DNA of 64,000 nt. It comes from a virus. Both the position numbers and the translations under genes were made by a program. Of the stretch, positions 24,290 to 62,492 are shown in pieces (the first letter of the stretch is position 1; every line of letters begins with the position of its first letter). The notes under the pieces are model-generated. The model was not told the DNA's origin. It searched no databases and was given only the letters and a program-made list of their open reading frames with translations. The stretch is taken from IMG/VR virus record IMGVR_UViG_3300020214_000005, positions 33,936 through 97,935 of that record. One strand, 5' to 3'.

Positions 24290-25624
24290 TCAGGCTGGTG
24301 CGCTGTTGAAGGTAACCTTCACGAAGGCTTCCGGCCTCTTGACCGCCAGCGCCAGGCGCTGCTCGGCCAGGATGACGATCGCGTTGCGGACGAAGAAGTC
24401 CGAGTGCTGTTCGCTGACTCGGATGCTTGCCTGCTCGCGGTCGTATAGCTGGGCGCCGGTTCCGAACGCACCGACGAGGGCGGTGCCCTCGGCGATTGCC
24501 GGTGACTCGACAACCGAGGTCCTCCACAGCCTCGGCTGACCGCCGAGAGCCACGGAAACCGCGACTAGGTACTGACCGTTGTCATCTTTCGAGAGTTCGA
24601 TCTTCTCCCAGTCGCTCGGGTGCATGACCACGCCGGTCGGCTCGTAGTAGGCAAGGAACGACAGGGTCAGGGCGCGACGAATCGCGTCTCCCCTATTGTC
24701 CCCGGTCTGACCAGACGACCAGTTGTAGGTCTGGATTCCCGCCGTCTGAAGGACGCCCCTCAGGTTCTCGCCCGACCCGCTGCCGTTGAGGATTTGCGAG
24801 TCCTCAAGGAGACGCAAACCGTACATGAGCTCGTTGTCGATGATGCTGCGGAGCTGCGGTTCGTCGGCCAGCACGTTGCGGTGCGCGGCTTCCCAGTGGG
24901 CAAGCGTGCGGACCGAAGCGGCTTCGGCGACGAACTGGAGGCTCGACTGCGGCTTGGCAGCGAACACGTCCGGGTTCGGAGTCGTGTCTCGCTGTGCCAC
25001 CGCAGCAGCGGCGTTTGTTGCCGTCGTTCCCGGCGTTGTGTAGCCGAGGTGACGGAAGTACTCGATCACGGCCGCAGTGGTCGTGCGCGACGGGAACAGG
25101 TCCCTGACGCGCTTCGTCCTCGTCGGCTGGGTGACCATCGGGTCGCGCTGCACGGTTCCGAAGTTCGCCGTCGCACCGTTGGCAAGGTTGCCCGTCGGCA
25201 TCGCCGAGAACACGTCCTTGACACCGTACTCGGTGAGCGAACCGGTGTACTGCCATGGTGAGGCCATGTTGGCACCGTTGCGTCCCCCGTTGAGGGCCTT
25301 GAACTCCGGTGAGTCGACGAACTGTTGTCCGATCGACCTCGGGGCTTGCTGAACTGGTGCGATGACCGCTGCTTGGGCGGCTATCGATGCATCGGCCGGG
25401 GATGAACCCCAGTCCTTCACCTGGTTGAGCGACTCGAGACCCTCAATGAGTCCCTTGATCTCGCGGATGTCGGACATGTTCTTGTCGAAGGCCGACTTCT
25501 GCTCGGTCGTAACGACGACCGTTCCGTTGTCAACGCGGAATGAGTCCGCGATCTCTTTGTTTTGCTGCATCTTTTCGCGGAGTGCTGACTGCAACTCGCG
25601 GAGCCTGCTCGTGTCTTCCGACAT
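24290..25624 (-). CDS. HK97-family major capsid protein, 444 aa
   Basis: Residues 1-75 form an acidic coiled delta/scaffold-like region (SRLRELQSALREKMQQNKEIA..., KGLIEGLESLN). The shell domain follows, with the RTKRVRDLFP N-arm, a long helix with LADEPQLRSIIDNELMYGLRLLEDSQILNGSGSGENLRGVL, GVVMHPSDWEKIELSKDDNGQYL and QASIRVSEQHSDFFVRNAIVILAEQRLALAVKRPEAFV, all typical of the HK97 capsid (phage_capsid) family. AGGAGG precedes the ATG. The prohead protease that would remove the delta domain is not in the window. A hairpin follows the gene. In 25625-25749 upstream I see no convincing promoter. Confidence 0.93.
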   Translation of the reverse strand: MSEDTSRLRELQSALREKMQQNKEIADSFRVDNGTVVVTTEQKSAFDKNMSDIREIKGLIEGLESLNQVKDWGSSPADASIAAQAAVIAPVQQAPRSIGQQFVDSPEFKALNGGRNGANMASPWQYTGSLTEYGVKDVFSAMPTGNLANGATANFGTVQRDPMVTQPTRTKRVRDLFPSRTTTAAVIEYFRHLGYTTPGTTATNAAAAVAQRDTTPNPDVFAAKPQSSLQFVAEAASVRTLAHWEAAHRNVLADEPQLRSIIDNELMYGLRLLEDSQILNGSGSGENLRGVLQTAGIQTYNWSSGQTGDNRGDAIRRALTLSFLAYYEPTGVVMHPSDWEKIELSKDDNGQYLVAVSVALGGQPRLWRTSVVESPAIAEGTALVGAFGTGAQLYDREQASIRVSEQHSDFFVRNAIVILAEQRLALAVKRPEAFVKVTFNSAPA

Positions 25625-34900: not shown

Positions 34901-37900
34901 TCATCACCTCTTCTGTGATGAAAAAACCGTACTTGCTCGGATCCTTCTCGTAGTGCTGGCCTCCGAGGATCCGCGAATACCTGTTCGCCTGTGAGAGCCA
35001 ATCATGGAAGCTCGGGAACAGTCTCTTGTGTTGATCGATCGACTTACCGATGGCCTTGACTGCTGGGTGCTCCGACGGGTCCCCGGTAAATTCCCCTGCT
35101 TGGTCCTGCCGGATGGAGTTGTTCGGCTGACCTGGGTCGTAGTTTAGTTTGTAGTTCAGGAGATCGTCCCCGACACTCATTTGGAAGTCGTCCCGGGTTA
35201 TGTTGAACGAGTAACGAACCGGATCACGACCGTGTCTGATGTCCTCGATTGGGAACATGTCCTCGCCCAGCGTCATGTGGAGCAGCAGGTACTCCTTCAG
35301 CGCGGCGAGGAAGAAGTTCGCTCTTGCTTTGTTCTGGTCGTCCCTAACGACGTATGGGCCGTCGGGGAAGTCGAATGGCGCGTTGGGCATCCGCCTGATC
35401 AAATCAAGCGTCGCGTTCTGGAGCGCCTGGAAGATGAGCTGCGAGGCAGAGTATGAGCCGTCCTTCCTCTGACGGATCGCAATTTCGTCAGGGACGTCTC
35501 CCTCCTGCGCGCGGAAGAAGGCGGCCAACGCCTTCATCGCGTAGTCGTTCTCCTCGGGCACCGAGATCCGTGGAACGGTTGTGTCCCCGCTCGTGTAGTC
35601 GCCGCTTCTTATGAGGTCATAATCGTCTTTGCCGAACAGCGCGACAGCGGTTTCTTCGGGCAGGTCCAAATTTTCGTTGTTTCCCTGTTGGTCGCCGAGA
35701 GCCATCCCGGCCTCGGCACCGATACCCATGTACCTGTTAAAGTTCGCCTCGGAATCCGGTAACGCCCCCGATCGGAATTCGCCCCAAGACAAGACCTCCC
35801 CATCGGTTTCCGCCTCGGCGATCCTCCGGGCCCGCGCCGCCGCCCCGTACTCGGCGGGATCGTCGAAGGTTTCCGAGCCACCGGAGAAGAAATAATCGAT
35901 TATCTCGCTGTAATGCTGGCGTTCCTGCGGCGTAAGCAAGGACGGTTCGAGGATCTTCTCGCCGAAAGCCCCAGCTAGGGCCTCGTCCGTCCTCGAGAGA
36001 ACGTCGTCAAAGGTCCTCTTGGAGCCCTCCGTTCCGAAGGTCAGCATCATCATGCGCCTTCCTAAATTGTCGATCTTGGCCCTCGTTTGGGCAATCGGGC
36101 CCTGTTCGAGCCTTGCCTCGTAAGCTTGCCTGTCCATCCTCTGCAGGATTGACGGGATGATGTAGTTGTCTCTCAGTCGCTCGAGTTGTGCGTCTGACAG
36201 CGCTCCGATAATTTTCGCGGCGGAATCGGGAGATCCGTCATAGGTTCGCAGGAGTTCCGCAAGATTCGGCATCGCCGCTTGGCCATCCGCGGGTTCGGTG
36301 ACGACTTGGACCATCTCGTAGCCTCTTCCCTCCTTCGGGAAACGGTCAATGACGTCGCGGGCCATTCGCCGGCCCCCGTCCCGTTGCGACCGAAGAACAC
36401 CGATCGCCTTGGCCCGTAGTGAGGTCAGCCTTTCTGCGTCGGCGATCTTCGGCGGCAACAGGGGGACGATGAAGGTTCCCTGCGAGTTTCTGCCCATTTC
36501 CCACAACACATTTACGAGGGAGGCCACATTCTCCTCATTCGGCTCCATTTTCGCGAGAGCCCGTGAGACGGCACTATCGTCTTTGGCAAGGATCGCCGAG
36601 ACCAGGTCCCTGACAGGCACCGACACAGATTCGTCACCGAGGACACGTCTAACCTGGTCCCCGAAGAACCTATTTTCCGCGGGCTCGCGATCCGCCAACT
36701 GCCTCACGCCGAGCAACTTTCTCGCGACGGTGGCGAACGATATCGCCCGCAACTCGTTCTCGGTCAGTTCTTTTGCCTCGGGCGTCAGGATTTGAGCGGC
36801 CGACAGGGACGTGAGTTGTGCGTCGTTGAGCGAGGCGACGAAGGCAACGAGGGACTCCGAATCAAGCGGGGTTATGGCGTCGGCCATGGCCAGTTGAGCC
36901 ATGTGCACCGGGGTCGGTATGTATTCGCCGCGGACGCCGGACATGCGATCCGATGTCTTGGGTGCAGGAGTCTCCCCGGTGATGAGCTCGATCAACCGGC
37001 CCCTGTCCAAGGCCAGAGCCTGTAGCGCCGCCCTGGCTTTGGCCTTAACCGGGGAAACCGCATCGATGTCCGACGGTGTCACTGTTAATTCGCCCTCGGC
37101 CGGCAGTAGGTCTTCCCACAAATTGACGTTGAGGTTCTGGAGCAGTTCCGCATCGGTGAAATTTTCCGCGGACTCCGCCATAAGCTCGGGTTCGTCCAAC
37201 GCCATTGTCATTTTCGCGGCGTTGTACATGACGGCGTAGGGTGAGTTCAATCCACCTTCGGTCATATCCAATCTCGCCTGCGAGACAAAATCGGCCACAC
37301 TCTTCCACATTTCATTTATTTGTGAATCCGACAGTCTGTCTATGTAGGGCTCCAATCCCCCCATTTGCGACGCCGCCGACCGCATGTAAAAAGGCGAGCG
37401 CTGGTCGGTGACGCCCCGCGTGATGAAATCAAGGAAACCGCCGGGTTCCGCCATCCCCAGCAACCTTCGTCGTCGCACCTCCACCGCACGCATCGCGTAG
37501 TCGCCCTCGTCGCTGAGGGTTGCCACCCTGCTCAGCTCCCTAGCTCGGCGTTCGGCGACGACCCTCCCCCTGATCCCGTCCATCGTGGGACCGACCATGC
37601 CTGCCTCGGCCCCGTCCACCGGCTTGGGCAGGTCGATCATGTCGTAAAAGTCCGGGAATCTCCCGGTGACCTTGTTCCTGATCGCCGAGTCCGTCAGGTA
37701 GGAGTTTCCCATCAGTTGCTCGGAGATGTCGGCGCCGCTTGCCAACCCGTTTTTTGCGCTGAGGGAGCGAACCAGGCTATGGAAATCAGCGCTGTCCCTC
37801 ACGCCCATCAGCCTTTTCAGGTTCGAAACAACTTTTTCGGTTTTGTCCCCCGCACCGACGCCAACCTCGTCCAAAACTATGTCAAGAATGTCGTCGATGG

Positions 37901-45300: not shown

Positions 45301-47914
45301 TCTGTACCGGCGACAATCCGATGGGGACGTTCCCTTTCGGGGGGGACGGAGACGAAGTGGGTTGTTGGGGCGGCGTCGGGGCGACGGGCGTGGCGGTGAC
45401 CCTGGGCGTCCTTGACTTCCTTGGTTTCGGTTTGCTGGTCTTGGAGACCTGCGGGACCAACCCGACGTTCGCCTCCGACAGGATCTTGTCTCGCGCGGGG
45501 ATGGTGAGGGCCGACCACAAGGGTTCCATCGAAGGGCCGACCTGCCCCCGGGTTCCATAGACCACGGGCGCGGCCGAGGTAACTAGCTCGTCCAGCACGA
45601 TCAGGTTGTGTGCGTACTGCTGGATCTTGGCCGCATCATCCGGGGCGAGGTTCAAGATGCGGGTCGCGAGCACGTCCTCCGTCATGGGCGTGTCCCCCGC
45701 GATGTTGAGTTTGCTCCGCAGATAATCTGCGATGCCATGCCTCAGCCTATGGGCGCTTTCGATGATCGCCTGCTGCTCCAGCGCCGTGTACTCCGTTATC
45801 TTTTTCAAGTCGGCCGGTTTTTCGGGCGTGAACACGAGTCGACGAGGTTGGATCTTGCTGAGCGGCAGCAGGAGGGATGTCATCGATCCCCGCTCGCGCC
45901 ACTTCGGATTGATGACCGTCCGCTCCCCGATGGCGCCCTGGGTCCTCCGGTGACTGGCGTCCCTCATGTCTCTTCTCTGGATCTCCGCCGCCCGCGACAC
46001 GACCGACCTGTTCCTGTCGTCAATCATCCGCCAAGCAGAGGACTGCTTCGCTGGGTCCGTGGACGAGAGGATGTCGTCTATGGCGAGCAGGGCCGTGACG
46101 TCCGGGTACAGGTTGGCACCGCCTTCCGTCAGGAAATAGTGGCCGTCGGCCACCGCGTTGGCCACCGACTCGGGCGTGACGACCCCGTCGACTCGGTAGT
46201 CCGGGTCGCCGGGGAGTTCGGGCGTCATGATTTCGTTTATGCTCGCGACGAGTTGGTCCCGGCGAGACCTGAGTTGCCCGACCAAACTTGACTGCTCGGC
46301 GGGCGTGAAGTCGGACCACTCTATTTCGTCCTCGGCGAATCTGCTGTTGAAGGGCCGGCGCGCGCCATTGGGTTCCGTCGCCCTGAGCGCGTCGATCGCC
46401 GACAGGAGGTTTCGCTTCGACGCATCGTCCATCAGCCACGGGTCGCCGACGACACCACTTGGCGCATCGGCGGGGGTGGGCGGAACGGGGACATCGTCCA
46501 TGTCCGCGGTCTCCGCGGCGTCGGATCGGCCCAAACCTCTTGAGATTCGTGAAAGACGAGCCGAGAGCCTGTCGAGTATGCGCTCCCCGTCCTTGCGGGG
46601 ATTTTTCCCGTGACCGGATCTTTGGCCGCCGCTGGAGCCCCGGGCGATGTCGGCCTCGGTTCTTTGCTCGGCCGCACGGACGATCGGGGATGTCTCCGGT
46701 GACTCGCCCCTCTCGTTTCGCATCGCCGCCATCGGTCCATCGCCGAACGGACGCGAGACGAGGTTGCCTGCCTGTGCGAGGCGGGATTCGCCCTCGAGGA
46801 TCCGCCTGTTTTCCCTCCTAGTCCTTGGCCGGTCCCCGATGAAGGAGGATTGCGTCGCTGGCTTTATGCTGTCGGCCAAGTCGGACAGCCGCCTCCTGAG
46901 CCTGCTGGCTCCCGCGGCGTTTTGCGAGGCATTGGGAATTAGGCGGTTCAAGTCGTTGGTGGCCGCTGCCAGCGCGTTGATCCTCTCGGCTTCGGCGTTC
47001 CGTCTGGTCATCCTCGACACCCTGGACGGTTTGTTGAGTATGTTGGCCATCCCACCGCCGAATGACCTCACCCCGCGGATCATCTCGCCCATCCCCAGCG
47101 GGGTCGGATCAAGGATTCCCCGTCCCATGTTGATCCACGGGATTCCCTCGTAGATCAGCGTGTCGGAGTCGGCGTCCCTCACGATGTGGGGCGGGGGCAG
47201 GTTCACCAGACCGATCGGCGCCGATTTCTCGAAGTAACCGATCCTGTCGAGGAAGACGAAGGCGTTCGTCTTTATCTTCCTGTCGAACCTCTCGAGGACG
47301 TTGGTCAGATCCATCGCCGGCCTGGGCATCGCCCTCCAGCGACCGTCGAACACGGTTGCCTTCGAGCCCTTGACGCACGTGATGAACGATGCGAAATTTT
47401 TGTTCCTGGTGAATTGCCTCGCTTTGAATTCGACGGCGTCCTTTTTGATCTGCACGTCGAACATGCTTATGCCGACGTCCGACATCAGCCAGGTCTGTAT
47501 CGGTTCCGATTCGGGTTCCTGTTCCTCCACGGGTTCCGGGGGGAGCGCCTCGGTGTCTCCGGTCTCCGCCGATTTGGACTCGATGTCCGGGAACTCGATG
47601 CTCACCGGCGCGTTCGGGGCATCGCCTTCTATCAGTGCGATCAGATGTTTCGCGGTCGTGGGACCGAACAGGGAGTATCTCGCCATCAGGTTCTCCCTGC
47701 TGAGGGGGACGAACTCGGTCATCCTGAGGGACGGGTCGAGGGACAGACGTATCTGGTCCAACGATTTGGCGCCCGCGTTCACCCAGCCCGCCCAGTCCTT
47801 GCCCTGCTTGACCGAGCCGTGGGCAGTCATTCTCCCCTCGTCAAGAACGACGACGGCGAAGGTGGTGTTCGTGTCGCAGTCGTTGACCGTGGAGAAGAAA
47901 GTTTCAGACCCCAT
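42305..47914 (-). CDS. Giant head-region protein, 1869 aa, with shared GRGI-DPTP motif
   Basis: Residues about 243-272 (DADSDTLIYEGIPWINMGRG then ILDPTP) repeat the motif seen in the 918- and 4972-aa proteins. An acidic proline-rich linker lies around 120-140, and a longer proline/serine/threonine-rich linker (KTSKPKPRKSRTPRVTATPVAP) around 815-850. The rest is helical with several globular regions; the C-terminal 500 residues look like one folded domain with many aromatic residues. I cannot assign enzymatic activity. Only one degenerate junction (AREGM) is visible, so this protein is probably not cut like its neighbours. It overlaps the genes on both sides. Confidence 0.7.
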   Translation of the reverse strand: MGSETFFSTVNDCDTNTTFAVVVLDEGRMTAHGSVKQGKDWAGWVNAGAKSLDQIRLSLDPSLRMTEFVPLSRENLMARYSLFGPTTAKHLIALIEGDAPNAPVSIEFPDIESKSAETGDTEALPPEPVEEQEPESEPIQTWLMSDVGISMFDVQIKKDAVEFKARQFTRNKNFASFITCVKGSKATVFDGRWRAMPRPAMDLTNVLERFDRKIKTNAFVFLDRIGYFEKSAPIGLVNLPPPHIVRDADSDTLIYEGIPWINMGRGILDPTPLGMGEMIRGVRSFGGGMANILNKPSRVSRMTRRNAEAERINALAAATNDLNRLIPNASQNAAGASRLRRRLSDLADSIKPATQSSFIGDRPRTRRENRRILEGESRLAQAGNLVSRPFGDGPMAAMRNERGESPETSPIVRAAEQRTEADIARGSSGGQRSGHGKNPRKDGERILDRLSARLSRISRGLGRSDAAETADMDDVPVPPTPADAPSGVVGDPWLMDDASKRNLLSAIDALRATEPNGARRPFNSRFAEDEIEWSDFTPAEQSSLVGQLRSRRDQLVASINEIMTPELPGDPDYRVDGVVTPESVANAVADGHYFLTEGGANLYPDVTALLAIDDILSSTDPAKQSSAWRMIDDRNRSVVSRAAEIQRRDMRDASHRRTQGAIGERTVINPKWRERGSMTSLLLPLSKIQPRRLVFTPEKPADLKKITEYTALEQQAIIESAHRLRHGIADYLRSKLNIAGDTPMTEDVLATRILNLAPDDAAKIQQYAHNLIVLDELVTSAAPVVYGTRGQVGPSMEPLWSALTIPARDKILSEANVGLVPQVSKTSKPKPRKSRTPRVTATPVAPTPPQQPTSSPSPPKGNVPIGLSPVQSRLGDFGEATKTPVSVVVDATNRVVTTTLEDGTQETKPLSSFGRPNQYDLTNSLLIDDVFYVFEPSLGLYRDPVTGNYLTDYSQVPISINSQISIADALGPVQSSKKLPDLVSYPSITPSKDDTGRKYGLSDEGPQKLTVTEVLARVFNIDEELAKDLLGTKIYYAPGVLPGKSTNSFRQAALLLLNTSTLNNAIPQGEKQKLQMLDVVDIPEGSDPIESYLNYIGRPDIAVGYVAAGRPANFLEFQSRATQARSPRANATNAREGMNIPDTSLLPEHLKGYDFNRYYRSAILSSIFAAEDPSDDFQTLIPGMAADAKPRVRKMVVLWRHPDNFSMKHLAYRDNLTQVQEIALAVNKALSTDHPNDWFAAFEAVRNAYDQARERRRDALNKWRNVKGAASRSPRPRREFILAGEMLESLETILADIFENNMHKVEDSVRQKSAGTARVVNEMGRLRKRAVQSGLRNVAGLEESLLIPPVNLDGTPLPPRGVDEILGMVERHTTLGFLPHIPRTLTSDDPIELAELSEEAISTLALINMAVEELKDPETQRPLQEVLGRHHMGNPQRNALHNAIYWATGAKGRPILVTEDEFELLAGSTMLKEVTVPPVSGDQWVMNFVEMRRGIAMAKPPMTTNQMAAELIKGPLYIVGEGGEHGGSGINFARRAGMLNYGGRDPSGDIVLALIPRTTRIENKDRMSAIHGQLLEMYGAFFSAITHFSGIEKTMPIDLDADNDPDWSHDNMANPFYRSNRSLTAHGYFVPYGKKSVGAHRGQIGGATLESHARAKGITIPQVDTADPEAIRDLAKILLTISEDLFSRNDNEFSWDSERGARVDAQADPLYGKQWWRATRMQIFGWMVQLEVLKSMEMAKLKAEGKVPWNERLANLVSAQEILSFWNDEVTMGMLFGVDVYQSGGDLPMTQNPVALFRPSVIGDHIMVLNRTALVMLHKPVTQAAEAEIYSLIRNPQIRKPDDPSKVWNPYYQRWIDDPDFGTTAQDET

Positions 47915-50949: not shown

Positions 50950-53706
50950 TCAGCCTCCTGCGCTGGTTCTGTTCATGACCGACCTGGCCCAGGCGATCAT
51001 CTCGGCGTGCAGTCTTTCCACGGCACGCCTTTCTTTCTCATTCAATTTTCGCATAAATTTCTCCATTTTCATCAGCATAACTGGATGTAATTCCGCATAG
51101 GTTTCCGAATTGCTGGCCAACTGGAACTTTGGCAGGAAGTTATGGTTGTCGTAGTCCGCTGGACCTGCGTAATCCGTGATTTTGGACACCGCCGACTGGA
51201 CGAGCCTGATTTCGTCATCCGTAAGGTTTTTCCAGCCGTTGCTACCCTGGACGGCGTACCACCTGTTCACCACCTGGGCGAGCATTGTTGTGTCGTTGCT
51301 CGTTGCGTCCTTCAGGTACTCGGTCGGGCTGAACGCCCCGTTTTGGTCAAACCAGGGACGGTTGTGATGCCGCCCGTAAACTTCCATGAATTCCTTGACG
51401 ACTGCTGGATTCTCTGAGATCAGGTTTGTCATCAGGATTCTGCCCCCGTCTATGTTGACTTGTTTGATCATCTCCTGGGTGACATTGTTGACGAACCAGT
51501 CGTTTGCGTAATCGAAACCCTTGATTTTGTTTTGCGCATCGGCATAAGCGTTGCGGGAGTTGGAGATGTAGGCGTAGAGCCCGTTGGTGTGCTTGCTGTG
51601 CGCAGCCACAACCGCCGAGACCAACGCCACGGCGCGCTGGGCCGGTTTTGGCAATCTGTCTATTTTTTTGTAGGCGCCCTTGATCATTGGTTCTATACTC
51701 TCCGTGTAGAACCTGTATTGATCCATGTCGCTCAGTTTCGTGATACTGGCGATGCTTTTCTCCCCGATCTGCCTCAACCGATCCATGGCCTCCTGGGCCG
51801 TTCGCAGCAATTTTTCGGGCTGGTAGAGCAGATCGCGCCGGATGATGCCCGAGTTGATTATCTCGCCAGTCGTTTTTTCGAGTCTCTTCGGACTCACCGC
51901 CGGCCCATGTTGGCTGTCGTCGGCGAATCCCTTGTAATACAGGTTGACCAACCTTTGTCTGTCCGAATCTCCGATCCCCGCGGTCAGGATGGAGTCAATC
52001 AGCGGGTCCAACTCGGAAAGCTCGTCCTTTATGTCATTGGCGATAGCTAGAGCAATCGGAAAATCCCCTAATTCGGACTTGGCGCGAATCATTTCCAAGA
52101 CCGTTGATTTGACGAAATCGCGAGACACCATCTCCGAGAGATCGTCCCTGATCGGATGGTCCATTCCCAATCGCAGGGATGCCAGGGTGTACAGATCCCG
52201 ATCCTCCTCGTATTGACTGTTTATCCCGGTCGACGCCTTAGACATCGCCTGTTTGTACCCAGGGGAATTCTTGTAATCACCGATGAAATCGAGCCCGTGC
52301 CCAAACTCATGTGTGGTCACCACGAGCGACGCGGCCTTATTCGTATGGGAGTACACCTCGGCCATTCGTTGCTCGAGGGATCGGATCGATTGAAGGGCGT
52401 TCTCGTTCGGCACCTGCGAGTTGGCGCTCCTCATCTGCGCTATCTTTCCTTCTAGGTCTTCCATTTCCTGGATGCCGCCCACTATTACCGACATTGCCAC
52501 GGAATCCAGAAGCGGTTGGGTCGTCTCGCCGGTCTGATCCAACACGTTCTGCCAGAAATCGAGAAGTTGTTTTTTCATTTCCATCATATCGCCCGGCGGG
52601 TTCGCGATCTTGCCGTACGCCTTGTTGGGGTCCTGTCGCAAAACTTGCAGCGACAGGTTGAGCATCCCGGAGGGGATAAGCCTCATCAGGGCGCCTTTTT
52701 GGCCTTCGCTCTTGTAGATCGGTAGCATTATGGCTATCGGTATTCGCGCGCCGCTGGTGACCCTGCCTCCTAGTATATCCATCGCAAACTGACTCATGTC
52801 CTTGGCGCCCGAGACCGCCTCTTGGGGCATAGATAGACCTGCCAACCGCGTTTGACGCTCGTTTCGGGAGTCCTGCGATATGAGGTAATAGGTAGGCAAC
52901 GCCGCGCTGCGGCCCCCGGCGTGATCACTTTCCGTCGCTTCGTCTGGGGGGTTTGTCGCCGCGACGAGGAGATGGACATCCCTGAAGGCTTCGGGATATT
53001 CGAGAACGTTCGCGGCCACGCCGTAGTAGACGCCGTAGTCGTAGCTGGACATCGGGGTACTGTCCCCCGAGAACCGCGGGCTCACTGCGCTGAGTTCGGG
53101 TTGCATCTGGGAGGCGAAATACGGGATATCTAGTTTGAAGTTGCTGCTTCCGGACTCTCTTGAGTTGACCAAATTCTCCAGTCTCTTCAGGCTGTCGGTC
53201 GCATCCCTCAAAGTTTTCGGTTTCGTCCCCAGTACCGCGTCGACACGGGTTTCGACCTCCTCGACGGAGGCGAAAATTTCGTCCATCAACATAATGTTCT
53301 CGGGCCTGGAAAAGATTCTCGAGCTGTACATGGCCGCCATCGGCCCGTCTGCGTGGCTCATTGTCATCAATGGGCTCGGCCGCATCGCGCTCATTCGTTT
53401 CGGGGTTCCGAGCTCGGCTTGCGCCTCCCGTCTCAGCCTCCTGTTGAGGGGTTGGAAATTCCCCGGAGTTGGGTCGATGATCCCTCGTCCCCTGTTGATC
53501 CACGGGATTCCCTCGTAGACGTAGGGGTCAAGGTCGGCGTTCCTCACGAGGTGGGGCGGGAGGAGGGGTTTAGCGCCGATGGGTCGCAAGATCTTGGTCC
53601 TCACGGTCTCCGTCAGCTGCGTCACGGACGACAGGGCGGCATCGGTCTTGTCGTCGACGAACGAGTCGCGACCCCTGCGCCTGGAACCTATCTTTCTACG
53701 AGTCAT
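50950..53706 (-). CDS. Zincin-like metallopeptidase-domain protein, 918 aa, with GRGI-DPTP motif
   Basis: Residues about 53-82 (NADLDPYVYEGIPWINRGRG then IIDPTP) carry the motif shared with the 1869- and 4972-aa proteins. The active-site-like motif HEFGHGLDF lies at 466-474, within a long helical region as in gluzincin or MuF-associated zincin domains; a third metal ligand downstream is not assigned. The C-terminal 250 residues are helical and contain no recognised domain. Such peptidases in phage polyvalent proteins are thought to process proteins in the infected cell or in the head. It overlaps the 69-aa gene by 4 bp. Confidence 0.7.
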   Translation of the reverse strand: MTRRKIGSRRRGRDSFVDDKTDAALSSVTQLTETVRTKILRPIGAKPLLPPHLVRNADLDPYVYEGIPWINRGRGIIDPTPGNFQPLNRRLRREAQAELGTPKRMSAMRPSPLMTMSHADGPMAAMYSSRIFSRPENIMLMDEIFASVEEVETRVDAVLGTKPKTLRDATDSLKRLENLVNSRESGSSNFKLDIPYFASQMQPELSAVSPRFSGDSTPMSSYDYGVYYGVAANVLEYPEAFRDVHLLVAATNPPDEATESDHAGGRSAALPTYYLISQDSRNERQTRLAGLSMPQEAVSGAKDMSQFAMDILGGRVTSGARIPIAIMLPIYKSEGQKGALMRLIPSGMLNLSLQVLRQDPNKAYGKIANPPGDMMEMKKQLLDFWQNVLDQTGETTQPLLDSVAMSVIVGGIQEMEDLEGKIAQMRSANSQVPNENALQSIRSLEQRMAEVYSHTNKAASLVVTTHEFGHGLDFIGDYKNSPGYKQAMSKASTGINSQYEEDRDLYTLASLRLGMDHPIRDDLSEMVSRDFVKSTVLEMIRAKSELGDFPIALAIANDIKDELSELDPLIDSILTAGIGDSDRQRLVNLYYKGFADDSQHGPAVSPKRLEKTTGEIINSGIIRRDLLYQPEKLLRTAQEAMDRLRQIGEKSIASITKLSDMDQYRFYTESIEPMIKGAYKKIDRLPKPAQRAVALVSAVVAAHSKHTNGLYAYISNSRNAYADAQNKIKGFDYANDWFVNNVTQEMIKQVNIDGGRILMTNLISENPAVVKEFMEVYGRHHNRPWFDQNGAFSPTEYLKDATSNDTTMLAQVVNRWYAVQGSNGWKNLTDDEIRLVQSAVSKITDYAGPADYDNHNFLPKFQLASNSETYAELHPVMLMKMEKFMRKLNEKERRAVERLHAEMIAWARSVMNRTSAGG

Positions 53707-53926: not shown

Positions 53927-56900
53927 TTATTGCCGGACGGAATCCCAGTCAAGTTTCAATGCTGGCACTTTGCCCAACATTCTCTCCAGCCTAGCAAAAT
54001 GCTCCTTCGCTTCCGGTGTCAGGTTCCGCACCGCCACGTCAACGGACCCGTCCGGAATTATCCGTTCCAGCATTTCCATCATCTCCTCGACTTGCTGGAG
54101 TTGTTTCACGCTGAGCGCCTCGCGGAAACGCTCGGCGTAGAGGGTCAGAACGCGGGCCTCGGCGACGGCCTCAAAGATGTTCGTCTGCCCGTACTTCGAC
54201 GACCTGCCCAGAACCCGCATGACGTCGTCGGTCGGCACGCCAAGCGTCGAGGCGAACTTGGAGTCGTAACCAAGCACCTGATCCATGATCCGCTTGTGCG
54301 TGGCCAGGAACTCTTCCGGCGTTTGCCCCTCCAGCACCTCCGTCACGATCTTTCTCACGTCCTCGGGCCCGAGGAACTTCGTTTCGTCCGAATTGTCGTC
54401 CAACGCGAGGAAGAAACTCCCCACTTTTTCGGGCATTTTGTTCCTTGCGATTATCGACCGTTTCTGGTCCTCTGTCAGGTTCTCGGGAAACGTGCCCGCA
54501 AACGGATTGGCCGCCGTGTCGTCGTATGTCTGCAGCGCGTCCACCATCCTGCTGAAATTGTCTGCCGATACGTTCTTTCTTGTGGATCCCGCCGTTCCCA
54601 TGGTCTCCATTAGTCGTTCTCGCATGCTTTCGCCAGTAAAACCGCCACCTTCTTTTCGGCGTTGGTCCCGAACTTGATTCAACCTGTAGAGGCGCTCGAC
54701 TATCTCGTTCATGGAGTGGTCGAGGGGCGGAGCGAGGTGGACCCAACTGATGTCGTGGGTTTTCTGCGACTCTTGTACGTCAACCCACTCCTCGGGTGTC
54801 GCTTCGATAACTGAAGCGTGAGTTTCCAAGTTCGCTGGGTCTCGTAAGGGATTCGTCTTGGCGAATGTCTCCCGAACGTCGTCCCAGGTTGCATCCTGCG
54901 GAAAATTGTGTCTCCGGGCGATCTCCGTTCCCATCAGGCTTTTGTCAAGGCGGCCGTCCAGCTGCTCCGACAACGGAGGCGCGTCCCGTCCGACCTGCAA
55001 CCCGAGGCTCGAGTACCACGTTTTGTAGTGCTCCAAGTGCGCGTACTCGTGCACGCCGAGCCCGAAGTGATAATCGTCGGCGCCGGCGAAGCGGATAACT
55101 TCAGACAGACCCTGCCCCTTGGACAACGGGCCTTCGTCGGATCCGAAGAACAAACTCGAGTCGAAGGCCAATATGGTGGGATTCAGCGTTACGACGAGCT
55201 TGACCTTGCCGTCTCGACCGAGTTCCGTTTGCGCATATCCGGCAAACTTTCTCCAATCCGACTTGTCGTTAATGTGCATTCTGATGGTCGTGGCCCGCCT
55301 CAGTGACGGGTCCTTCTCCAGTGCCGGCTCGGCCCCAGCCAAAACATCGAGGAACCCCTGCGCCATCGCCTCCCTGACCTCCCTCCTTCCCTCCTCGGTC
55401 TGGGCCAGCTCGAGGGCCGCCAGTTTGGCCGCCCCCTTCATGTGGTTGAGTTCCCTGTCCTCGAAACTGTCATTCGGGTCGGGAATCTGATCTTCTTTGC
55501 CGTCTTGTTCGGCGGTCCTCAGGAAGTAGTCCATGGCTTGGTCCAGTTGCTCGCTGAACGTCATGGGCGTGCCACCGGGCCACGACCATCCGCTCTCGCG
55601 CGCGACGCCCATGTTGTCCATGAGCTCGTCCGCATAGGACTCAACTGGCTCGCCGTGCCTGCCCGGTGCGTACTTCTCGACGAGGGCCTTTCTCTGCTGG
55701 GCGATCGATGCGGTGAGCGCGTCGGAATCCGCAGTCACTTGCGTCAATGTCTGCGAGTCCCTTGCCGAAAATGGCGGCGGCATCGCCATGACGGTCTTTG
55801 CGTCGGCATCCGTGTCCCTTTTGAGCGCCGGACCGTTACGCCTCTCCATTTCTGCGTTTACTGCGTCCGCGCGGGACATCGCCCTCCCCGCCTCCGCCAT
55901 GCCGGCCTCTGGGCCGAGACCAGGTTTGTCCCTTCGCCCCGGCGGAACCAGGTCCCTCCTGTAGTGCACGACCGCTCCGTCCTCGGCGAACAGCCTGTCC
56001 GCGCTCTCGAAGTTGACGAGATCTTTGGCGGTGGCGCGAGTCTCGAATTTGCCGTCCCCGCCCTTTCTGTAGAGCGAACCGATCCTCTGCCTCTCCTCCG
56101 TGGAGAAGATCTCCGGCCTGTCCCGGAGCGCCCTGTCGATCACGCCGATGAAGTTCTGCTTGGACTTTTCGTCTTGCCACGTGAACCCGTTTCTGGCCCA
56201 GTGGGTTGCCCCCGTCTGGAAGACCATGTCCGGCATCTCCGGGTTGTCGGAGTCAGGCAACGACGACGAGGTGCCCTTCAGCGTGATGCTCCTTGCCCCG
56301 ATCGCCTTGTAAATGTTCTCGTTGCGGGCGTTGAACTCGCTGGCGAGACCCATGCCCCGGTATTTATCATAGACGACGATATCGGCGTGCTCTATCTCGA
56401 TGTCGCCGTGACTGTTTACGTTGACGAAGTTCGTGGCGTGCCCGTAGAGGACTTTGCCGTCAGGCGAAGTGAGTTCCATGGGTATTTCTATCCTCAATCC
56501 ACCGTTGCGGTTGGCGGTCACATGCGACGGGGAATTCCTCACCCTGATGCGCACGTCGCGCACGCCGGCATTTTCCCTGTCCAACCGGAAATTTCCCGAG
56601 AAAAGCTTGTTCATCGCCCAATAGATGGCGGCCCTCTCCTCGTAGATGGCGTTCTTCTCCGCCGGGGTCTGGCCACGCCGATGACGCGCGCCACGGGCAG
56701 CGTTCGCGAGACTGCGTCGCGCTTCGTCTATCTCGTCTCGCTTCGTCGAGACGACGTCCGCGTGTTTGCGCACTAATCTGCCGTAAGTGCTTCCCCCTTC
56801 TCGGCGTGCTCCAGCCATGCCAGCCTCGGCCTGGGAATCTAAATCCCTTTCATTTCTTCGCAACGCCCTATCCAGCAAAAAGCTCGCTCGCTGTTTGCTT

Positions 56901-59900
56901 ATTTTCAATTCGTCAGCAATATCCTGGACTTTTCCACCATTGGCCCGTATTTCCAAGATCCGGTTATCGCGATCATCAAGTTTTCCAATATTTTGAAGTT
57001 TTCGCCGCTCCGGCGTTTTATCGGCCATCAACCATGCGTCTCCAAAAATCTCCATGGGGTTAGCACCAAGGGCCGAAACAACAAGCCTGTCGGCGTCGAA
57101 CGGCTCAATCGACGCGTCTGGTTCGTGCATCTTGTCAATAATTTCCCTGGTAACCCCCAAAACCGATGCCTGTTCATCTCGATTTTTGCGGCGCAATCTG
57201 TCAAAATTCAAAATTTCCTGCGCTTTAAGTGCTCCGCCCTTTTTAATTTTATTTGACGTAAACCAGTTATTTCTGGCCGGCAACTTTTCGTTCGGTACCT
57301 CGCCCTGCGGCAGGCCCATTCCGGCCTCTGCGACGTCGCCGCGCGGTCTCCCTATTCGCCGACCCACCTCGCGCGCCCTCCCCCTAGCCGAATCGACGAT
57401 CCCCTCGCCCATTTCGGCGAGCCTTCTTCTGTTTTCGGGGGTGTTGATTCGCTCGTTGAAAAGATCCGCCGCTTCCGAGAAAGCCCTACCGAGTTGTCTC
57501 CTTGCTCCGTCCGGAAGGCCGTCCGGGGCTATTCTGTCGACGGCCGCCATGGCCCTGCGCGCTTGTTCGGCGTCTATCTTCCCTCGCTTGAGCAATTCGT
57601 CTATCGTGAATTCGGCGAGATCCCTTCCGCCTCTTCTCGCCGCCTCCACCGCGACGTAGGTAGCCGCGCCGGCGGGCCCCCCGGCGCTGAACGCCGTTGC
57701 CAATCCGAGGCCTATTTTAACTTTTTCCTTGGTTTCCTCGTCCGCCCCGGTTCTTTTCAAAATCTTGTCAAGCAACTTGGCCAGGGCGCGGTCCCTCAGC
57801 GTTCCCCTTGTCACCCTTCCGACGGTGCGAGACCTGTCGCCGCTTGCCATCCCCGCCTCCGCGCCGATCCCGGGACGATCCTGACGGCGCCATTCCTCGT
57901 TGAACCGATTGGACTCCCGCCTGATGATTTCTTGGTCCCGGCGAGACAATCTTCCCAACATCCCGGCATCCGCGCTGCCGACCATCCCGCGATCCCTGTA
58001 TCCGTCTCTTCGGGCGTCGTAATAACCGTCTCCGTCGTCCACCGAAATGAGTATCTCGTCACCGCTATCGTTGACCATTCTGTGGAACCTGCCACCGCCC
58101 CGGTTTCTCTTCCTCGGTCCTGTCTGCCGTCCGCTCCCCTGCCCGTCGTCGCCCAATCTGCCGATGGGCCTGCTGATCTGCTGGAATTGCTCTCTCTCCA
58201 GAGCTTCAATGAGATCGTCCGGTCGGTCGTCTTCTCCGGCCTTCCTCGCTCGCTCGTACCAAACGTTCTTGAACGTCACCACCCTCCCGTCCTTGTAGGT
58301 GACCCTGAGATCGCCGTTTTTCGGATCGTAGATAATCACTCGCGCTAGATCAGAATTTTTGGTGTCCACGAGCATCAGATGCGCTGCGGCTGTGCGCGGT
58401 GGATTGTCCGGATCGTCCGGGCGCGCCGCCGTCGGTTTGCGCTTGGATGCGCGGTCGGTGGGGACGAAGCCGTGGAGCTTCAGATCCGCCATGGCCTCGC
58501 GGTTTCTTCGGTTAACGTAGACGGTCTCTCCGGTTTCCTTATTGGTCATCCGAATCTGTCCGTCCGCCGAACTACCGTCGAGGAACTGCATGTTCCTCTC
58601 CTCCATCTCGGTGGACGAACCTTGGTGCGCCCCTTCGGGGCCGAGCGCCGGCGGTTCGTTTTTCGATATGCGCTCCTCCAATTCCCTGGATTCGCGCGAC
58701 AACCGATTGTTTTCCGCGTCCGCCTCGTTCAAATCTTCGTAGGCCACCCTGTACTCCGCCCACGCGGCCGGGTCGCCGTCCCCGCCCCTGTCCGGGTCGG
58801 ATCCGGTCCGTCTCGCTCGCCTGAGGGCGTCGTCGTGGCGAGTTTCGGCTTCCGACACTCGGGCCCGGCTTCGGGGAAGTTCCTGCGTGCGGATTTCAGT
58901 CACGCGTAGCCGGTCCCTTTCCCTACCGGGTGGTATTTCCGAAGATTCGGGGGCTTCAGGGACCGTCGCCACCGGTACGGCGGACTCGTCGTCGTCGAAT
59001 AGTTCGCGCATCCTTCTTCCCTTGTCGGCGTCGGCTCTTCGTCTTTCCGGAGAGACTCGATCGGCGTCGGTTTCGGGTCTGACCGTCGGCTCGACGAGAT
59101 CGTCGTCGGTCTTGGGTCTGACTGGTCTCTTTACTCCCGTGCCGGTGACCCTTGGGGGAGCCTCGGGTTTTGGTCCGTCAACATCCTCAATAACAACTTC
59201 TCGTCCACGCCTGCCAGTGCCCGGGACGTCCGGCCCCACGCCCGAACCCCTCAACCTGCCCGCATCCGGAGCCGGTGGGACGTCGCCCGGGACGTCCGGG
59301 TCGTCGGCCCTCGGGACGGTCGGAATCGTTGGTCCGGTGCCGGGGCCCAGGAGGATCGGAGGCCTGCCGATCGCGGCTCCCCCGCCGCCACCCGGGGCTC
59401 CCCCGCCGCCACCCGGGGCTCCCCCGTCAAACGGCCCAAAACCCTGGTTTGATCCCCGCGGCGCTTTTTTCCCGTAGAGCCGGTACACCTCGTCCTGCCC
59501 GACGTACCTCGCGACCAAGGTCATAAACGTGTTTTCATCAAGGTTGTGCGAGTTCCTTTCCGTGTCGGCGAGGAACTCCCGGATCTCGGCGAGCGCCCCC
59601 TGTTTGTTCAGGTGGCTCCTCAGCTCGGCGGCGAATTCGTAGTCGTTCTCTCCCGCGTACGTCCCGCCGATGAACCCGTGAAGCATATTCGAGACGAGGT
59701 TGTCGAGGCGCGCCTGGCCGAATGGGGTGTCAACATCGCCCGGCACGAGACTCCTCGGATGCACAGGCTGATTCGTAGCACCGGATAAGGGTCCCAGCCT
59801 GCCATCTATTAAGTTGAACGGTGTCGTATCCCGCCTACCGGTGAGCGGGTTGTACGGAAACTCAAAACGTCCCTCGTCCTTGTTCCATCGTCCCAGCGGC

Positions 59901-62413
59901 GTGTCCAGGAAGTCCCTCCAGAAATTGAGTAACGGAATTCCGTGTTCATCCGTGTAGCCCCGTATCGCCAGCTCTTCCCGGATCTGCTCGAGCATTTTTG
60001 CCTGCGCTTCTTTGCTGAGGCGTTGGCCGCCGTGGCGTGGCGCCTCGTTTGCAAGCCATCTGGCGAAGGCCGATTCAACCTGCGAGTCGAACTGGATGTT
60101 GAACATGTAGAACTCCCACAGCGCCTTCTTCTTTTCGTAGGGAGTCTTCAACGCAGCGGGGTCCAATACTTGCTGTAGTTTCTCGATCTGCTGCCCGAGG
60201 TAGGACACGGGGCGATAACCAAAGATCTCTCCGCTCGCGTCCTTTTCCGCGAGCCGGACGTAGTCTCTCCCGAGGTCGATTCGGTCTATCCACGACCCCG
60301 ACGCCGGGTCGAATCTCTGGCGCGACAGCCTCTCCTTCCATTCGGCTTCTCCGTACCCCGCGGAGGAGGAAAAATACCCGAGCTTATTTCCCAGCCTCTG
60401 CGCGAAATCGTCTATGTGGCTCAACTCGTGATCGGCTGTGTGCATTAGGAAGGCTTCCCTTTTGGGGTCCATGCCGAGATGGTCGAAGCTGAATCCTGTG
60501 AGACTGTCCTTCTGGTATTGGCTGTCGGCGAACCACTTCGGGTCGATGGTGATGGTCGCCATGAACGGCACGCTGTCTCCTGAGTTAAGCAACCACAAGG
60601 GAGTCGCTCCGTTAAGGTGGTCTAGAGGCTCCGATCCGGGATTATAGGGAAACGGGGTCATGTCGTCGAGGTGCGGGCGTTCGACGAAGCCTTCGTCGCC
60701 GAAGAAGCCGGTCACGGCCGTGATCACGGACGCATCCTTGAGATTTGAGTCGGGGGCCGCCGACCTGTCGCGCCAATGCTTGATCCGTATAAACGTCGGG
60801 ATCACCTCAGCGAAGCGCTTCTTGTGCTCGGGGTTGTCGGTTCCGTCCGGCAGCTTCGCTGGGCCGCCCGTGTTCAGCATGCCTTCCGCCGTCATGAGCA
60901 TATACTCGGCGAGTCGTTCCGCCGCTTCTTTCCGTAACCTTTCCTTCGCCCTGTCCGACTTCTGGTCGAACATCAAGCCATTATTCTCCGGGGCGTGGAC
61001 TATCTGCTCGACGATCGCCTCGAAGAGGGTCAGGTCATCCCTTATTGCGCCGTTGACGACCGCGGTGTCGGCCCCGCCCATGAAACTTCCGATGGGCCTG
61101 CGGTAAGCGTCCACCAGTGCGTTGCCCTGCGCGTCCTTGAAGGAACCCGTCCATCCATGGTGTCTAACGAACTGGTCAATTTGCTCCCCGGGGTGCGGCG
61201 CCCTTCCCGTTCGCAACTCGAAGTCTGCGGCCCATCGCTTGTGTTCGTCGGACCCAATGAACTCTTCGAACATTCTCCGTATTTTCTTTGCTCTCTCGGT
61301 TGCCCTTTTTTCCCGCTCTCTTTGCTTGTTCCTCGACACCAACGAACGCAGGCCGATAAATCCGAATCGCTCCGAGCGTCTGGCCGCTATCGTGTCGATC
61401 ATGCCCGCGGCCGGGTCGAGGTCGTTGGGTCTGTCGGCCTCGTAGTGCGGTGTGTGCCCGCCCCTCACGCCGGTCAACCTAGCCCTCAGCCTCTCGGCAA
61501 GGCTCGGGCGCGAGCCCGGCACGTCGGGGCCGTCCGCGGCGTCGGCGAGTTTCTCCCTCGCCCCCTCGGCCCTACCGACGATCTCGTCGACCGGACCCGG
61601 CACATCAACCACGCCCCGGACCGCCCCCACGACGTTCCCCAGTATGTTGGCTCCCGGCACGTCGCAACCCGTCCCGAAGATATCGGTGAACCTGTTGGCA
61701 TTGGGGCCCGACCCGCAACGAATCTTGTTCAGCTCGTCCTTCCACAGACCCCTGGCCCTGAGGATGGCGTCCATGACGTTCCTCGCCATGTCCCTAATCT
61801 CCCTGCCGAGGATTCCCTTCTGCTCGAAAGGGGGCATGCTCTTCGTCTCGGGCTCCGGGGCGAAGGCAAGCGCGGGGTTTACCTCGGGCACACCCAACGC
61901 TCTCAGCCCTGCGTCGACCACTTGCTCTACCCCGTACTCATCCTGAGAGTACGAGTCGTCGTTTATGTTTTTCTCGCACAGCGTCACGCTTCCGTAACCC
62001 GGCATCATCGGCGGGAGGGGGTCCCCGACCTCGTACGACGCCGCCCAGTCGAGGAATTTTTTCGGGATGAACGGGAGCATCCGCGCGAACGGCTCGTCTG
62101 GTAAATCCTCCCCGGGTGGTTCGGGCTCGGCGACGGGGGATCTCGATTGCTTGGGTTTCAGCGCCTTGGTCATCGCAAACGACGCCGACCCGCCCTTGGC
62201 GGCGACCGCCGTGAGTCGCGCGTCGGCCCAGGCCGAGTTGTGCCCGGACCCGTACGTGCCCGATCCGACGTCCCTGCTGCCGTCGAGGAACATGCGGTTC
62301 CTGGCGTGATCCACGAACGCGATACGCCCGTCCTTCAGGGCATACACGAACGTCGTTCCGTGTTTTGCGACCATTTTTGCGTTGAGCGGAACGTTGAACG
62401 GGGTTGGCGACAT
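53927..62413 (-). CDS. Giant polyvalent head-region polyprotein, 2828 aa, with two zincins, KTSC, HTH and GNAT modules
   Basis: ATG at 62413 follows AAGGGCAG; the longer frame lies upstream of it and is read as 5' leader. Residues about 228-250 hold R-C-x-S-G...R-F-T-D...G-T-G-C. Zincin 1 has HELSH at about 661. A glycine/proline linker lies around 1000-1020 and a KTSC-like segment around 1350-1390. Junction methionines are at 338 (AAGM), 1485 (DAGM), 1522, 1699, 1866 and 2172 (EAGM). Slice 1522-1698 has a hydrophobic Gly/Ala stretch, 1699-1865 two helix-turn-helix motifs, 1866-2171 a GNAT-like acetyltransferase (KYRGMGLASEF) and 2172-2828 zincin 2 (HEYAH at about 2455). It probably acts inside the head or after injection. 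Confidence 0.85.
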   Translation of the reverse strand: MSPTPFNVPLNAKMVAKHGTTFVYALKDGRIAFVDHARNRMFLDGSRDVGSGTYGSGHNSAWADARLTAVAAKGGSASFAMTKALKPKQSRSPVAEPEPPGEDLPDEPFARMLPFIPKKFLDWAASYEVGDPLPPMMPGYGSVTLCEKNINDDSYSQDEYGVEQVVDAGLRALGVPEVNPALAFAPEPETKSMPPFEQKGILGREIRDMARNVMDAILRARGLWKDELNKIRCGSGPNANRFTDIFGTGCDVPGANILGNVVGAVRGVVDVPGPVDEIVGRAEGAREKLADAADGPDVPGSRPSLAERLRARLTGVRGGHTPHYEADRPNDLDPAAGMIDTIAARRSERFGFIGLRSLVSRNKQREREKRATERAKKIRRMFEEFIGSDEHKRWAADFELRTGRAPHPGEQIDQFVRHHGWTGSFKDAQGNALVDAYRRPIGSFMGGADTAVVNGAIRDDLTLFEAIVEQIVHAPENNGLMFDQKSDRAKERLRKEAAERLAEYMLMTAEGMLNTGGPAKLPDGTDNPEHKKRFAEVIPTFIRIKHWRDRSAAPDSNLKDASVITAVTGFFGDEGFVERPHLDDMTPFPYNPGSEPLDHLNGATPLWLLNSGDSVPFMATITIDPKWFADSQYQKDSLTGFSFDHLGMDPKREAFLMHTADHELSHIDDFAQRLGNKLGYFSSSAGYGEAEWKERLSRQRFDPASGSWIDRIDLGRDYVRLAEKDASGEIFGYRPVSYLGQQIEKLQQVLDPAALKTPYEKKKALWEFYMFNIQFDSQVESAFARWLANEAPRHGGQRLSKEAQAKMLEQIREELAIRGYTDEHGIPLLNFWRDFLDTPLGRWNKDEGRFEFPYNPLTGRRDTTPFNLIDGRLGPLSGATNQPVHPRSLVPGDVDTPFGQARLDNLVSNMLHGFIGGTYAGENDYEFAAELRSHLNKQGALAEIREFLADTERNSHNLDENTFMTLVARYVGQDEVYRLYGKKAPRGSNQGFGPFDGGAPGGGGGAPGGGGGAAIGRPPILLGPGTGPTIPTVPRADDPDVPGDVPPAPDAGRLRGSGVGPDVPGTGRRGREVVIEDVDGPKPEAPPRVTGTGVKRPVRPKTDDDLVEPTVRPETDADRVSPERRRADADKGRRMRELFDDDESAVPVATVPEAPESSEIPPGRERDRLRVTEIRTQELPRSRARVSEAETRHDDALRRARRTGSDPDRGGDGDPAAWAEYRVAYEDLNEADAENNRLSRESRELEERISKNEPPALGPEGAHQGSSTEMEERNMQFLDGSSADGQIRMTNKETGETVYVNRRNREAMADLKLHGFVPTDRASKRKPTAARPDDPDNPPRTAAAHLMLVDTKNSDLARVIIYDPKNGDLRVTYKDGRVVTFKNVWYERARKAGEDDRPDDLIEALEREQFQQISRPIGRLGDDGQGSGRQTGPRKRNRGGGRFHRMVNDSGDEILISVDDGDGYYDARRDGYRDRGMVGSADAGMLGRLSRRDQEIIRRESNRFNEEWRRQDRPGIGAEAGMASGDRSRTVGRVTRGTLRDRALAKLLDKILKRTGADEETKEKVKIGLGLATAFSAGGPAGAATYVAVEAARRGGRDLAEFTIDELLKRGKIDAEQARRAMAAVDRIAPDGLPDGARRQLGRAFSEAADLFNERINTPENRRRLAEMGEGIVDSARGRAREVGRRIGRPRGDVAEAGMGLPQGEVPNEKLPARNNWFTSNKIKKGGALKAQEILNFDRLRRKNRDEQASVLGVTREIIDKMHEPDASIEPFDADRLVVSALGANPMEIFGDAWLMADKTPERRKLQNIGKLDDRDNRILEIRANGGKVQDIADELKISKQRASFLLDRALRRNERDLDSQAEAGMAGARREGGSTYGRLVRKHADVVSTKRDEIDEARRSLANAARGARHRRGQTPAEKNAIYEERAAIYWAMNKLFSGNFRLDRENAGVRDVRIRVRNSPSHVTANRNGGLRIEIPMELTSPDGKVLYGHATNFVNVNSHGDIEIEHADIVVYDKYRGMGLASEFNARNENIYKAIGARSITLKGTSSSLPDSDNPEMPDMVFQTGATHWARNGFTWQDEKSKQNFIGVIDRALRDRPEIFSTEERQRIGSLYRKGGDGKFETRATAKDLVNFESADRLFAEDGAVVHYRRDLVPPGRRDKPGLGPEAGMAEAGRAMSRADAVNAEMERRNGPALKRDTDADAKTVMAMPPPFSARDSQTLTQVTADSDALTASIAQQRKALVEKYAPGRHGEPVESYADELMDNMGVARESGWSWPGGTPMTFSEQLDQAMDYFLRTAEQDGKEDQIPDPNDSFEDRELNHMKGAAKLAALELAQTEEGRREVREAMAQGFLDVLAGAEPALEKDPSLRRATTIRMHINDKSDWRKFAGYAQTELGRDGKVKLVVTLNPTILAFDSSLFFGSDEGPLSKGQGLSEVIRFAGADDYHFGLGVHEYAHLEHYKTWYSSLGLQVGRDAPPLSEQLDGRLDKSLMGTEIARRHNFPQDATWDDVRETFAKTNPLRDPANLETHASVIEATPEEWVDVQESQKTHDISWVHLAPPLDHSMNEIVERLYRLNQVRDQRRKEGGGFTGESMRERLMETMGTAGSTRKNVSADNFSRMVDALQTYDDTAANPFAGTFPENLTEDQKRSIIARNKMPEKVGSFFLALDDNSDETKFLGPEDVRKIVTEVLEGQTPEEFLATHKRIMDQVLGYDSKFASTLGVPTDDVMRVLGRSSKYGQTNIFEAVAEARVLTLYAERFREALSVKQLQQVEEMMEMLERIIPDGSVDVAVRNLTPEAKEHFARLERMLGKVPALKLDWDSVRQ

Positions 62414-62463
62414 CTGCCCTTGATCCTCTATTCCCGGGGGCGGGATTTGACAATTACAAAACA

Positions 62464-62492
62464 ATTATAGACGTATAGTTGTTAGCTATCAG
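62464..62492 (-). promoter_or_regulatory. Late-type promoter CTGATA-N17-TATAAT
   Basis: On the minus strand a perfect TATAAT (62464-62469) is preceded after 17 bp by CTGATA (62487-62492), in the most AT-rich stretch of the right half. Transcription would start about 44 nt before the ATG of the 2828-aa gene. The boxes differ from the left-arm promoter family, as expected for another expression class. Confidence 0.55.

What the first reader, a model, noticed from the sequence alone, without database searches (positions are those of the whole stretch)
53927..62413. The same junction word separates DNA-binding, acetyltransferase and peptidase modules in a second giant protein
In the 2828-residue protein, junction methionines at 1522, 1699, 1866 and 2172 (E-A-G-M), plus variants at 338 (A-A-G-M) and 1485 (D-A-G-M), bound a Gly/Ala-rich hydrophobic slice, a double-HTH slice, a GNAT slice and a zincin slice. 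A further D-E-A-G-M occurs in the 697-residue protein (Met424). The junction is therefore a property of the late module, not of one gene, as expected if one trans-acting protease or one gene-fusion mechanism serves all.
Basis: partly seen in the sequence, partly recalled or inferred. Interest (0 to 1): 0.92.

Follow-up and report, generated by a model that had tools for sequence, protein, structure and literature searches.

The report
Phage polyproteins with lineage-specific cut sites
A freshwater phage strings dozens of likely injected enzymes together in proteins up to about 5,000 residues long, and its relatives carry the same chains with a different short word at the same joints, which is best explained by a phage-encoded capsid protease cutting the chains apart at a site each lineage has rewritten everywhere at once.

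Summary
One item fails: DEAGM in the 697-residue protein is ordinary conserved sequence, because orthologs in other lineages do not carry their own word there.

The new evidence is comparative. Relatives found through the major capsid protein have different words in the same kind of proteins: PTASM, ISGRM, GPxGKM, GLTGAM, (G/R)LSSG. The words sit at the same junctions in orthologous giants (8 of 8 for PTASM against 0.14 expected). Different codons encode them. In fold models they lie in low-confidence linkers between folded domains. They coincide with ends of shuffled modules.

Best explanation: packaged effector polyproteins processed by this protease, whose specificity co-evolved with its sites. 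No cleavage has been shown; the scissile bond is unknown.

The parts
53927..62464 (-). 2845-aa (2828 from ATG) giant head-module protein; likely effector polyprotein
   Evidence: near-identical copies in independent assemblies L001/L002
61400..61411 (-). AAGM word, M355; aligned AGM word in G003 and G004
57959..57970 (-). DAGM word, M1502; no counterpart found in G003/G004, weak
57848..57859 (-). EAGM word, M1539; G003 has SAGM at the homologous slice start
57317..57328 (-). EAGM word, M1716; in pLDDT<50 segment
56816..56827 (-). EAGM word, M1883; SAGM in G003 and G004 at the same junction; pLDDT<50
55898..55909 (-). EAGM word, M2189; pLDDT<50
57329..57847 (-). Ala/Gly-rich hydrophobic slice, 85.5% identical to a slice in G003, alignment starting 4 aa from the word in both
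56828..57316 (-). helical, HTH-like slice (Sigma70_r4 weak hit)
55910..56815 (-). GNAT acetyltransferase-like slice
53930..55897 (-). probable zincin slice (HEYAHLEHY); model poor
25959..40877 (-). 4972-aa giant polyprotein with 10 EAGM plus variants
39306..39317 (-). MAAM word, M524; AAM/PVAAM/PSGAM in relatives
38745..38756 (-). EAGM word, M711; PTGAM in G005
38250..38261 (-). EAGM word, M876; PVGSM in G013
37596..37607 (-). EAGM word, M1094; GPVGRM, ISGRM, ITGKM in relatives
35703..35714 (-). EAGM word, M1725; ITASM in G005
33945..33956 (-). EAGM at M2311; not matched in any relative, probably not a site
33861..33872 (-).
31851..31862 (-). EAGM word, M3009; TASM in G005, PSGAM in G013
28803..28814 (-). 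EAGM word, M4025; pLDDT<50
28287..28298 (-). EAGM word, M4197; pLDDT<50
27825..27836 (-). EAGM word, M4351; pLDDT<50
26904..26915 (-). EAGM word, M4658; pLDDT<50
28299..28802 (-). slice with the ClpC N-terminal-domain fold (Foldseek TM 0.82 to ClpC1 NTD)
26916..27824 (-). NUDIX slice (its internal AGM at M4528 is structural, not a word)
25962..26903 (-). Zeta-toxin-like kinase slice
40416..40496 (-). shared N-terminal signature DADLDG..LEGLP..NMGRGIPDPTPG in the 4972-aa protein
47096..47176 (-). same signature in the 1869-aa protein
53461..53541 (-). same signature in the 918-aa protein
24290..25624 (-). HK97-type major capsid protein; conserved NGANM at residues 116-120 (nt 25265-25279) may be its maturation site (inference)

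Best explanation
[quoted passage not shown] The released modules are then carried in the capsid and probably delivered with the DNA. In each lineage the protease recognises a different word (xAGM here, PTASM, ISGxM, GPxGxM, LSSG elsewhere), and all sites have been rewritten in concert while the junctions stayed in place. Shown by computation: word enrichment, orthologous junctions, position in linkers, protein-level selection, module boundaries, and the protease domain in the same reading frame as the first polyprotein. Inferred: cleavage itself, the scissile bond (most likely small-x-Met followed by Ser/Ala/Gly, by analogy with AXE|S in SPN3US), packaging, and delivery.
For: Words are enriched in head-module giants, are not among the top words of the rest of the genome, and have different letters per lineage: EAGM 18 (0.33 expected), PTASM 7 (0.01), ISGRM 12-13 (0.01), GLSSG 19 (0.02). 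They fall at the same aligned junctions: G005 8 of 8, G004 12 of 17, G003 11 of 16, G013 5 of 9, four distant ISGxM/VSGxM viruses 2-3 each, against means of 0.04-0.33 expected. Codons vary: PTASM 7 distinct DNA words of 7, ISGRM 12 of 12. All 7 words inside the two AF2 models lie in pLDDT<50 segments; in the better model only 18% of residues do. Ends of 218 cross-lineage alignments lie within 10 aa of a word 19.7% of the time against 5.7%. Peptidase_S78 lies inside the first giant of G003, G004, G007, G012, G015, G016 and of this virus (L162, 100% identical over 2875 bp of overlap). Word classes change the minimum number of times on the S78 tree (4; shuffled mean 9.8). SPN3US is a precedent for small-x-P1 with Ser at P1' (PMC10052503).
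Against: No proteomics exists and no cleavage is shown. The capsid protein's conserved NGANM does not change with the word class and is present even in LSSG lineages, so the protease's classical substrate does not show the same covariation. The tree correlation would arise with any vertically inherited gene. LSSG words lack Met, so one scissile rule does not fit all lineages. 40 of 70 loci with long ORFs show none of the five tested word classes at the chosen threshold, and a further scan found no convincing word in most of them. Two EAGM copies (M2311 of the 4972-aa protein, M434 of the 707-aa protein) look like chance.
Confidence: 0.8

Rival explanations
1. The polyproteins are cut at the words by their own zincin domains, as proposed for polyvalent proteins by Iyer et al. 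2017, not by the prohead protease.
For: Several HExxH-bearing modules lie in the giants; Iyer et al. propose embedded metallopeptidases that self-process (PMC5512222).
Against: The zincin slice of the 2845-aa protein found no homolog at 1e-8 in the relatives searched, while words and the S78 domain persist; a variable module is a poor candidate for a shared processing enzyme.
Confidence: 0.1
2. EAGM is an embedded Shine-Dalgarno plus start codon (GAGGCNGGNATG) giving internal translation starts, or a scar of fused genes.
For: In this virus EAGM uses GAG in 21 of 22 cases against a 63% background, and Ser/Ala/Gly follows Met as after many start codons.
Against: In G004 the same word uses GAA 12 to GAG 6; PTASM words carry no purine-rich motif; LSSG words have no Met; words at one junction differ between lineages.
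Confidence: 0.05
3. The words are short binding motifs for packaging or for a chaperone, not cut sites.
For: Concerted lineage-specific change would also fit a co-evolving binding partner.
Against: They recur many times per chain, in linkers and at module ends; one tag per chain would do, and a separate N-terminal signature shared by five giants is a better packaging-signal candidate.
Confidence: 0.05

Closest known systems
Polyvalent proteins of phages and conjugative elements (Iyer et al. 2017, PMC5512222)
   Same: Giant multidomain effector chains, in phages often near virion genes, with zincin, GNAT and kinase domains; likened there to RNA-virus polyproteins
   Different: Lineage-specific junction words are not mentioned in the parts read; processing is ascribed mainly to embedded zincins, and the assemblin-like protease, when present, is always C-terminal, whereas here S78 is N-terminal
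SPN3US prohead protease gp245 processing of head and ejection proteins (PMC10052503)
   Same: One phage protease cuts many head and ejected proteins at a short P3-x-P1 motif (AXE, Ser preferred at P1'); 14 sites in 9 substrates
   Different: There it removes propeptides; here it would divide 2,000-5,000-aa chains into many modules, and the motif is rewritten between lineages
S78 head maturation protease plus scaffold (Gordonia phage GMA6 Orf19, Brevibacterium phage Cantare gp13)
   Same: S78 domain in Cantare gp13; scaffold C-terminal domain of GMA6 Orf19 homologous to the 661-aa protein
   Different: In this virus the protease is fused to a giant polyprotein and the scaffold part is a separate 661-aa protein
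Phage P1 DarA/DdrB head-packaged, processed anti-restriction proteins
   Same: Head proteins processed before packaging (as reviewed in PMC5512222)
   Different: Single processing events are described, not serial words

Membership tests
Polyvalent proteins | Several biochemically different domains in one chain, encoded beside virion genes | tested here: met
   NUDIX, Zeta-like, ClpC-N-like and GNAT modules in giants adjacent to the capsid gene
Polyvalent proteins | Delivered into the host with the DNA | not testable with these tools
   needs virion proteomics and ejection assays
Peptidase_S78 prohead protease | Pfam PF04586 above its cut-off, in the head module | tested here: met
   41.4 bits (cut-off 21), residues 27-178 of the L162 reading frame; 13 of 19 records
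Peptidase_S78 prohead protease | Cleaves capsid protein and scaffold | not testable with these tools
   conserved NGANM in the capsid protein is only a candidate site
Protease-processed polyprotein | Repeated cleavage motif confined to linkers at conserved junctions | tested here: met
Protease-processed polyprotein | Demonstrated products ending at the motif | not testable with these tools
   needs N-terminomics
T4/phiKZ-type prohead protease (Peptidase_S77) | S77 domain in the genome | tested here: inconclusive
   No S77 hit in the truncated contig, and the control genomes did not ring either

The most novel reading that the evidence does not exclude
A tailed-phage polyprotein system in which a cis-encoded capsid protease and all of its cut sites, spread over several giant ORFs, have switched specificity in concert at least four times among relatives, while the junction positions stayed fixed.
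Probability: 0.7. Interest if true: 0.88.

Novelty: new variant of a known kind. Interest (0 to 1): 0.78.

Why it matters
It would give a sequence-only way to cut otherwise unreadable giant phage proteins into their functional units, opening a large stock of probable injected effectors of freshwater phages (ClpC-N-like, NUDIX, kinase, GNAT, zincin). It also provides a natural series of proteases whose specificity has been rewritten together with all of their sites, which makes protease-site co-evolution directly testable, and it extends the viral polyprotein strategy to tailed phages with a named, testable protease.

Tried and rejected
Peptidase_S77 search of the own contig: no hit, but the contig is incomplete and the control silent. 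Nucleotide-level explanations (SD plus ATG, DNA repeats): rejected by codon diversity and by G004 codon use. Word as a conserved fusion scar: rejected because letters differ at one junction. DEAGM of the 697-residue protein as a junction: rejected. AGM at M4528 of the 4972-aa protein: inside the NUDIX domain and conserved across word classes, rejected. EAGM at M2311: no counterpart in any relative, probably chance. Capsid protein as the covarying substrate: NGANM is nearly invariant, so uninformative. Matches to the 2845- and 1869-aa proteins in isolated phages: none. AF2 of the zincin slice: unreliable. Literature searches for lineage-specific phage polyprotein cut sites: nothing found in the held library.

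Full report
What is there. The window is the last 64 kb of a 97.9-kb viral contig. Near-identical copies occur in two sister assemblies, both of which run on to the right of the window. The major capsid protein is 24290-25624 and is 43-46% identical to those of Brevibacterium phage Cantare and Gordonia phages such as GMA6, with the giants upstream of it in transcription order. In those isolates the corresponding place between portal and capsid gene holds the protease, in GMA6 an ADP-ribosyltransferase, and proteins of about 1,000 aa.

More than chance. In the head-module proteins of the virus EAGM is the most over-represented 4-mer, 21 against 0.31 expected, or 21 against 0.28 in shuffles. In the 2845-aa protein alone [DE]AGM is 5 against 0.11. 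Residues around the words are poor in hydrophobics (3% in the five residues starting at the word against 26% overall) and rich in R, G and D; the residue after Met is A, S or G in 17 of 22 cases.

Relatives have other words. Eighty loci were fetched with the capsid protein and fourteen records read whole or nearly whole. Without supervision, leading enriched words of the head giants are EAGM in G004, PTASM in G005, ISGRM in G010 and G011, GLSSG in G012 and R(L/F)SSG in G007; G003 uses D/S/NAGM, G013 GP(V/I)GKM and G017 GLTGAM. In a few records (G008, G015, G016, G017) simple repeats outrank the word. None of the words is among the top words of the rest of the same genomes, though in LSSG lineages the long minus-strand protein that looks like a tail tape measure also carries one or two.

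Same junctions, different letters. In an alignment of the 4972-aa protein with eight orthologs, words coincide far above chance: 8 of 8 in G005, 12 of 17 in G004, 11 of 16 in G003, 5 of 9 in G013, 2 to 3 in the more distant four, with null means of 0.04 to 0.33. At own M2339 nine viruses read AGGM, NAGM, DAGM, TASM, PVGSM, ISGFM, ISGYM, ITGFM and VSGMM (G013 offset by a few residues). This test also cleans the list: EAGM at M2311 and AGM at M4528 are not sites, and DEAGM in the 707-aa protein is ordinary sequence.

Protein-level selection. PTASM is written with 7 different DNA words in 7 places and ISGRM with 12 in 12. The own virus favours GAG in EAGM, which looks like an embedded Shine-Dalgarno, but G004 uses GAA 12 times and GAG 6 times for the same word, PTASM has no such motif and LSSG has no Met.

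Linkers and modules. AF2 of residues 3990-4972 of the 4972-aa protein gives mean pLDDT 75.8, with the four words in segments below 50. Its domains match ClpC1 N-domain, NUDIX and Zeta/AvrRxo1-type kinase folds (Pfam NUDIX and Zeta_toxin); the assignment of the ClpC-N match to residues 4026-4193 rests on its size, its helical make-up and the order of the other two domains. AF2 of residues 1700-2845 of the 2845-aa protein has its three words in low segments and a GNAT-like slice, but the last third is not usable. Across lineages, alignment ends fall within 10 aa of a word 3.5 times more often than expected, and some slices, such as NUDIX and Zeta, are adjacent in one lineage and apart in another.

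The protease. Pfam Peptidase_S78 lies within the first giant of six relatives and in proteins of about 560-900 aa in others. The first giant of this virus is cut by its contig end at 3796 aa, but contig L162 overlaps it with 100% identity over 2875 bp and adds 1076 aa in the same frame, with S78 at residues 27-178 and three more EAGM. The C-terminal part of GMA6's protease-scaffold protein corresponds to a separate 661-aa protein here. On a tree of S78 domains the word classes change four times, the minimum, against 9.8 in shuffles; this would hold for any vertically inherited gene and is only consistent evidence.

Mechanism. A polyprotein with its own capsid protease, cut in linkers in the prohead, accounts for the enrichment, the junction positions, the linker placement, the lineage-specific letters and the protease location. 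Scissile bond, timing, packaging and delivery are inferred. By analogy with AXE|S of SPN3US (PMC10052503) the cut may follow Met, with a small residue at P3 and P1'; the LSSG lineages do not fit that rule, and the invariant NGANM of the capsid protein is unexplained if the protease specificity really moves. Five own giants share an N-terminal signature D-D-D..EG.P..GRG..DPTP that could be the packaging signal. Loci in which no word was found may be partial, may use words not looked for, or may not use this system.

Known or new. Polyvalent proteins were described in 2017 and likened to RNA-virus polyproteins (PMC5512222); prohead proteases with short motifs are known. Serial lineage-specific words with concerted rewriting, and an S78 protease at the head of the polyprotein, were not found in the searches made, which do not cover most subscription journals.

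Noticed in passing
window 28299-28802 (4972-aa protein, residues 4026-4193): A slice with the fold of the ClpC N-terminal domain (TM 0.82 to ClpC1 NTD): a possible injected decoy or adaptor for the host Clp protease.
   Followed up: partly
window 40416-40496, 47096-47176, 53461-53541; L002 3301-9783; L162 frame residue 536: Five giants share an N-terminal signature DADLD..(L/Y)EG.P..N.GRG..DPTP with a DxDxD calcium-loop look; candidate packaging signal.
   Followed up: partly
   Followed up: no
window 17506-17886: tmRNA gene with tag ANKQFALAA, plus two tRNA genes elsewhere in the window.
   Followed up: no
G000 contig 17500-31000 (L005) and 1-3600 (L004): Long stretches without coding-like third-position bias and, at the contig start, low-complexity repeats; possible chimeric or unusual non-coding region.
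   Followed up: no
G007, G012, G015, G016 minus-strand ORFs of 1490-1693 aa: Proteins that look like tail tape measures carry one or two LSSG words in the LSSG lineages, so the tail may be processed as well.
   Followed up: no
G004 4580-aa giant, residues 3020-3126 (own ortholog in L003): DnaQ-like exonuclease module (Pfam RNase_T, just under cut-off) in the protease-bearing giant.
   Followed up: no
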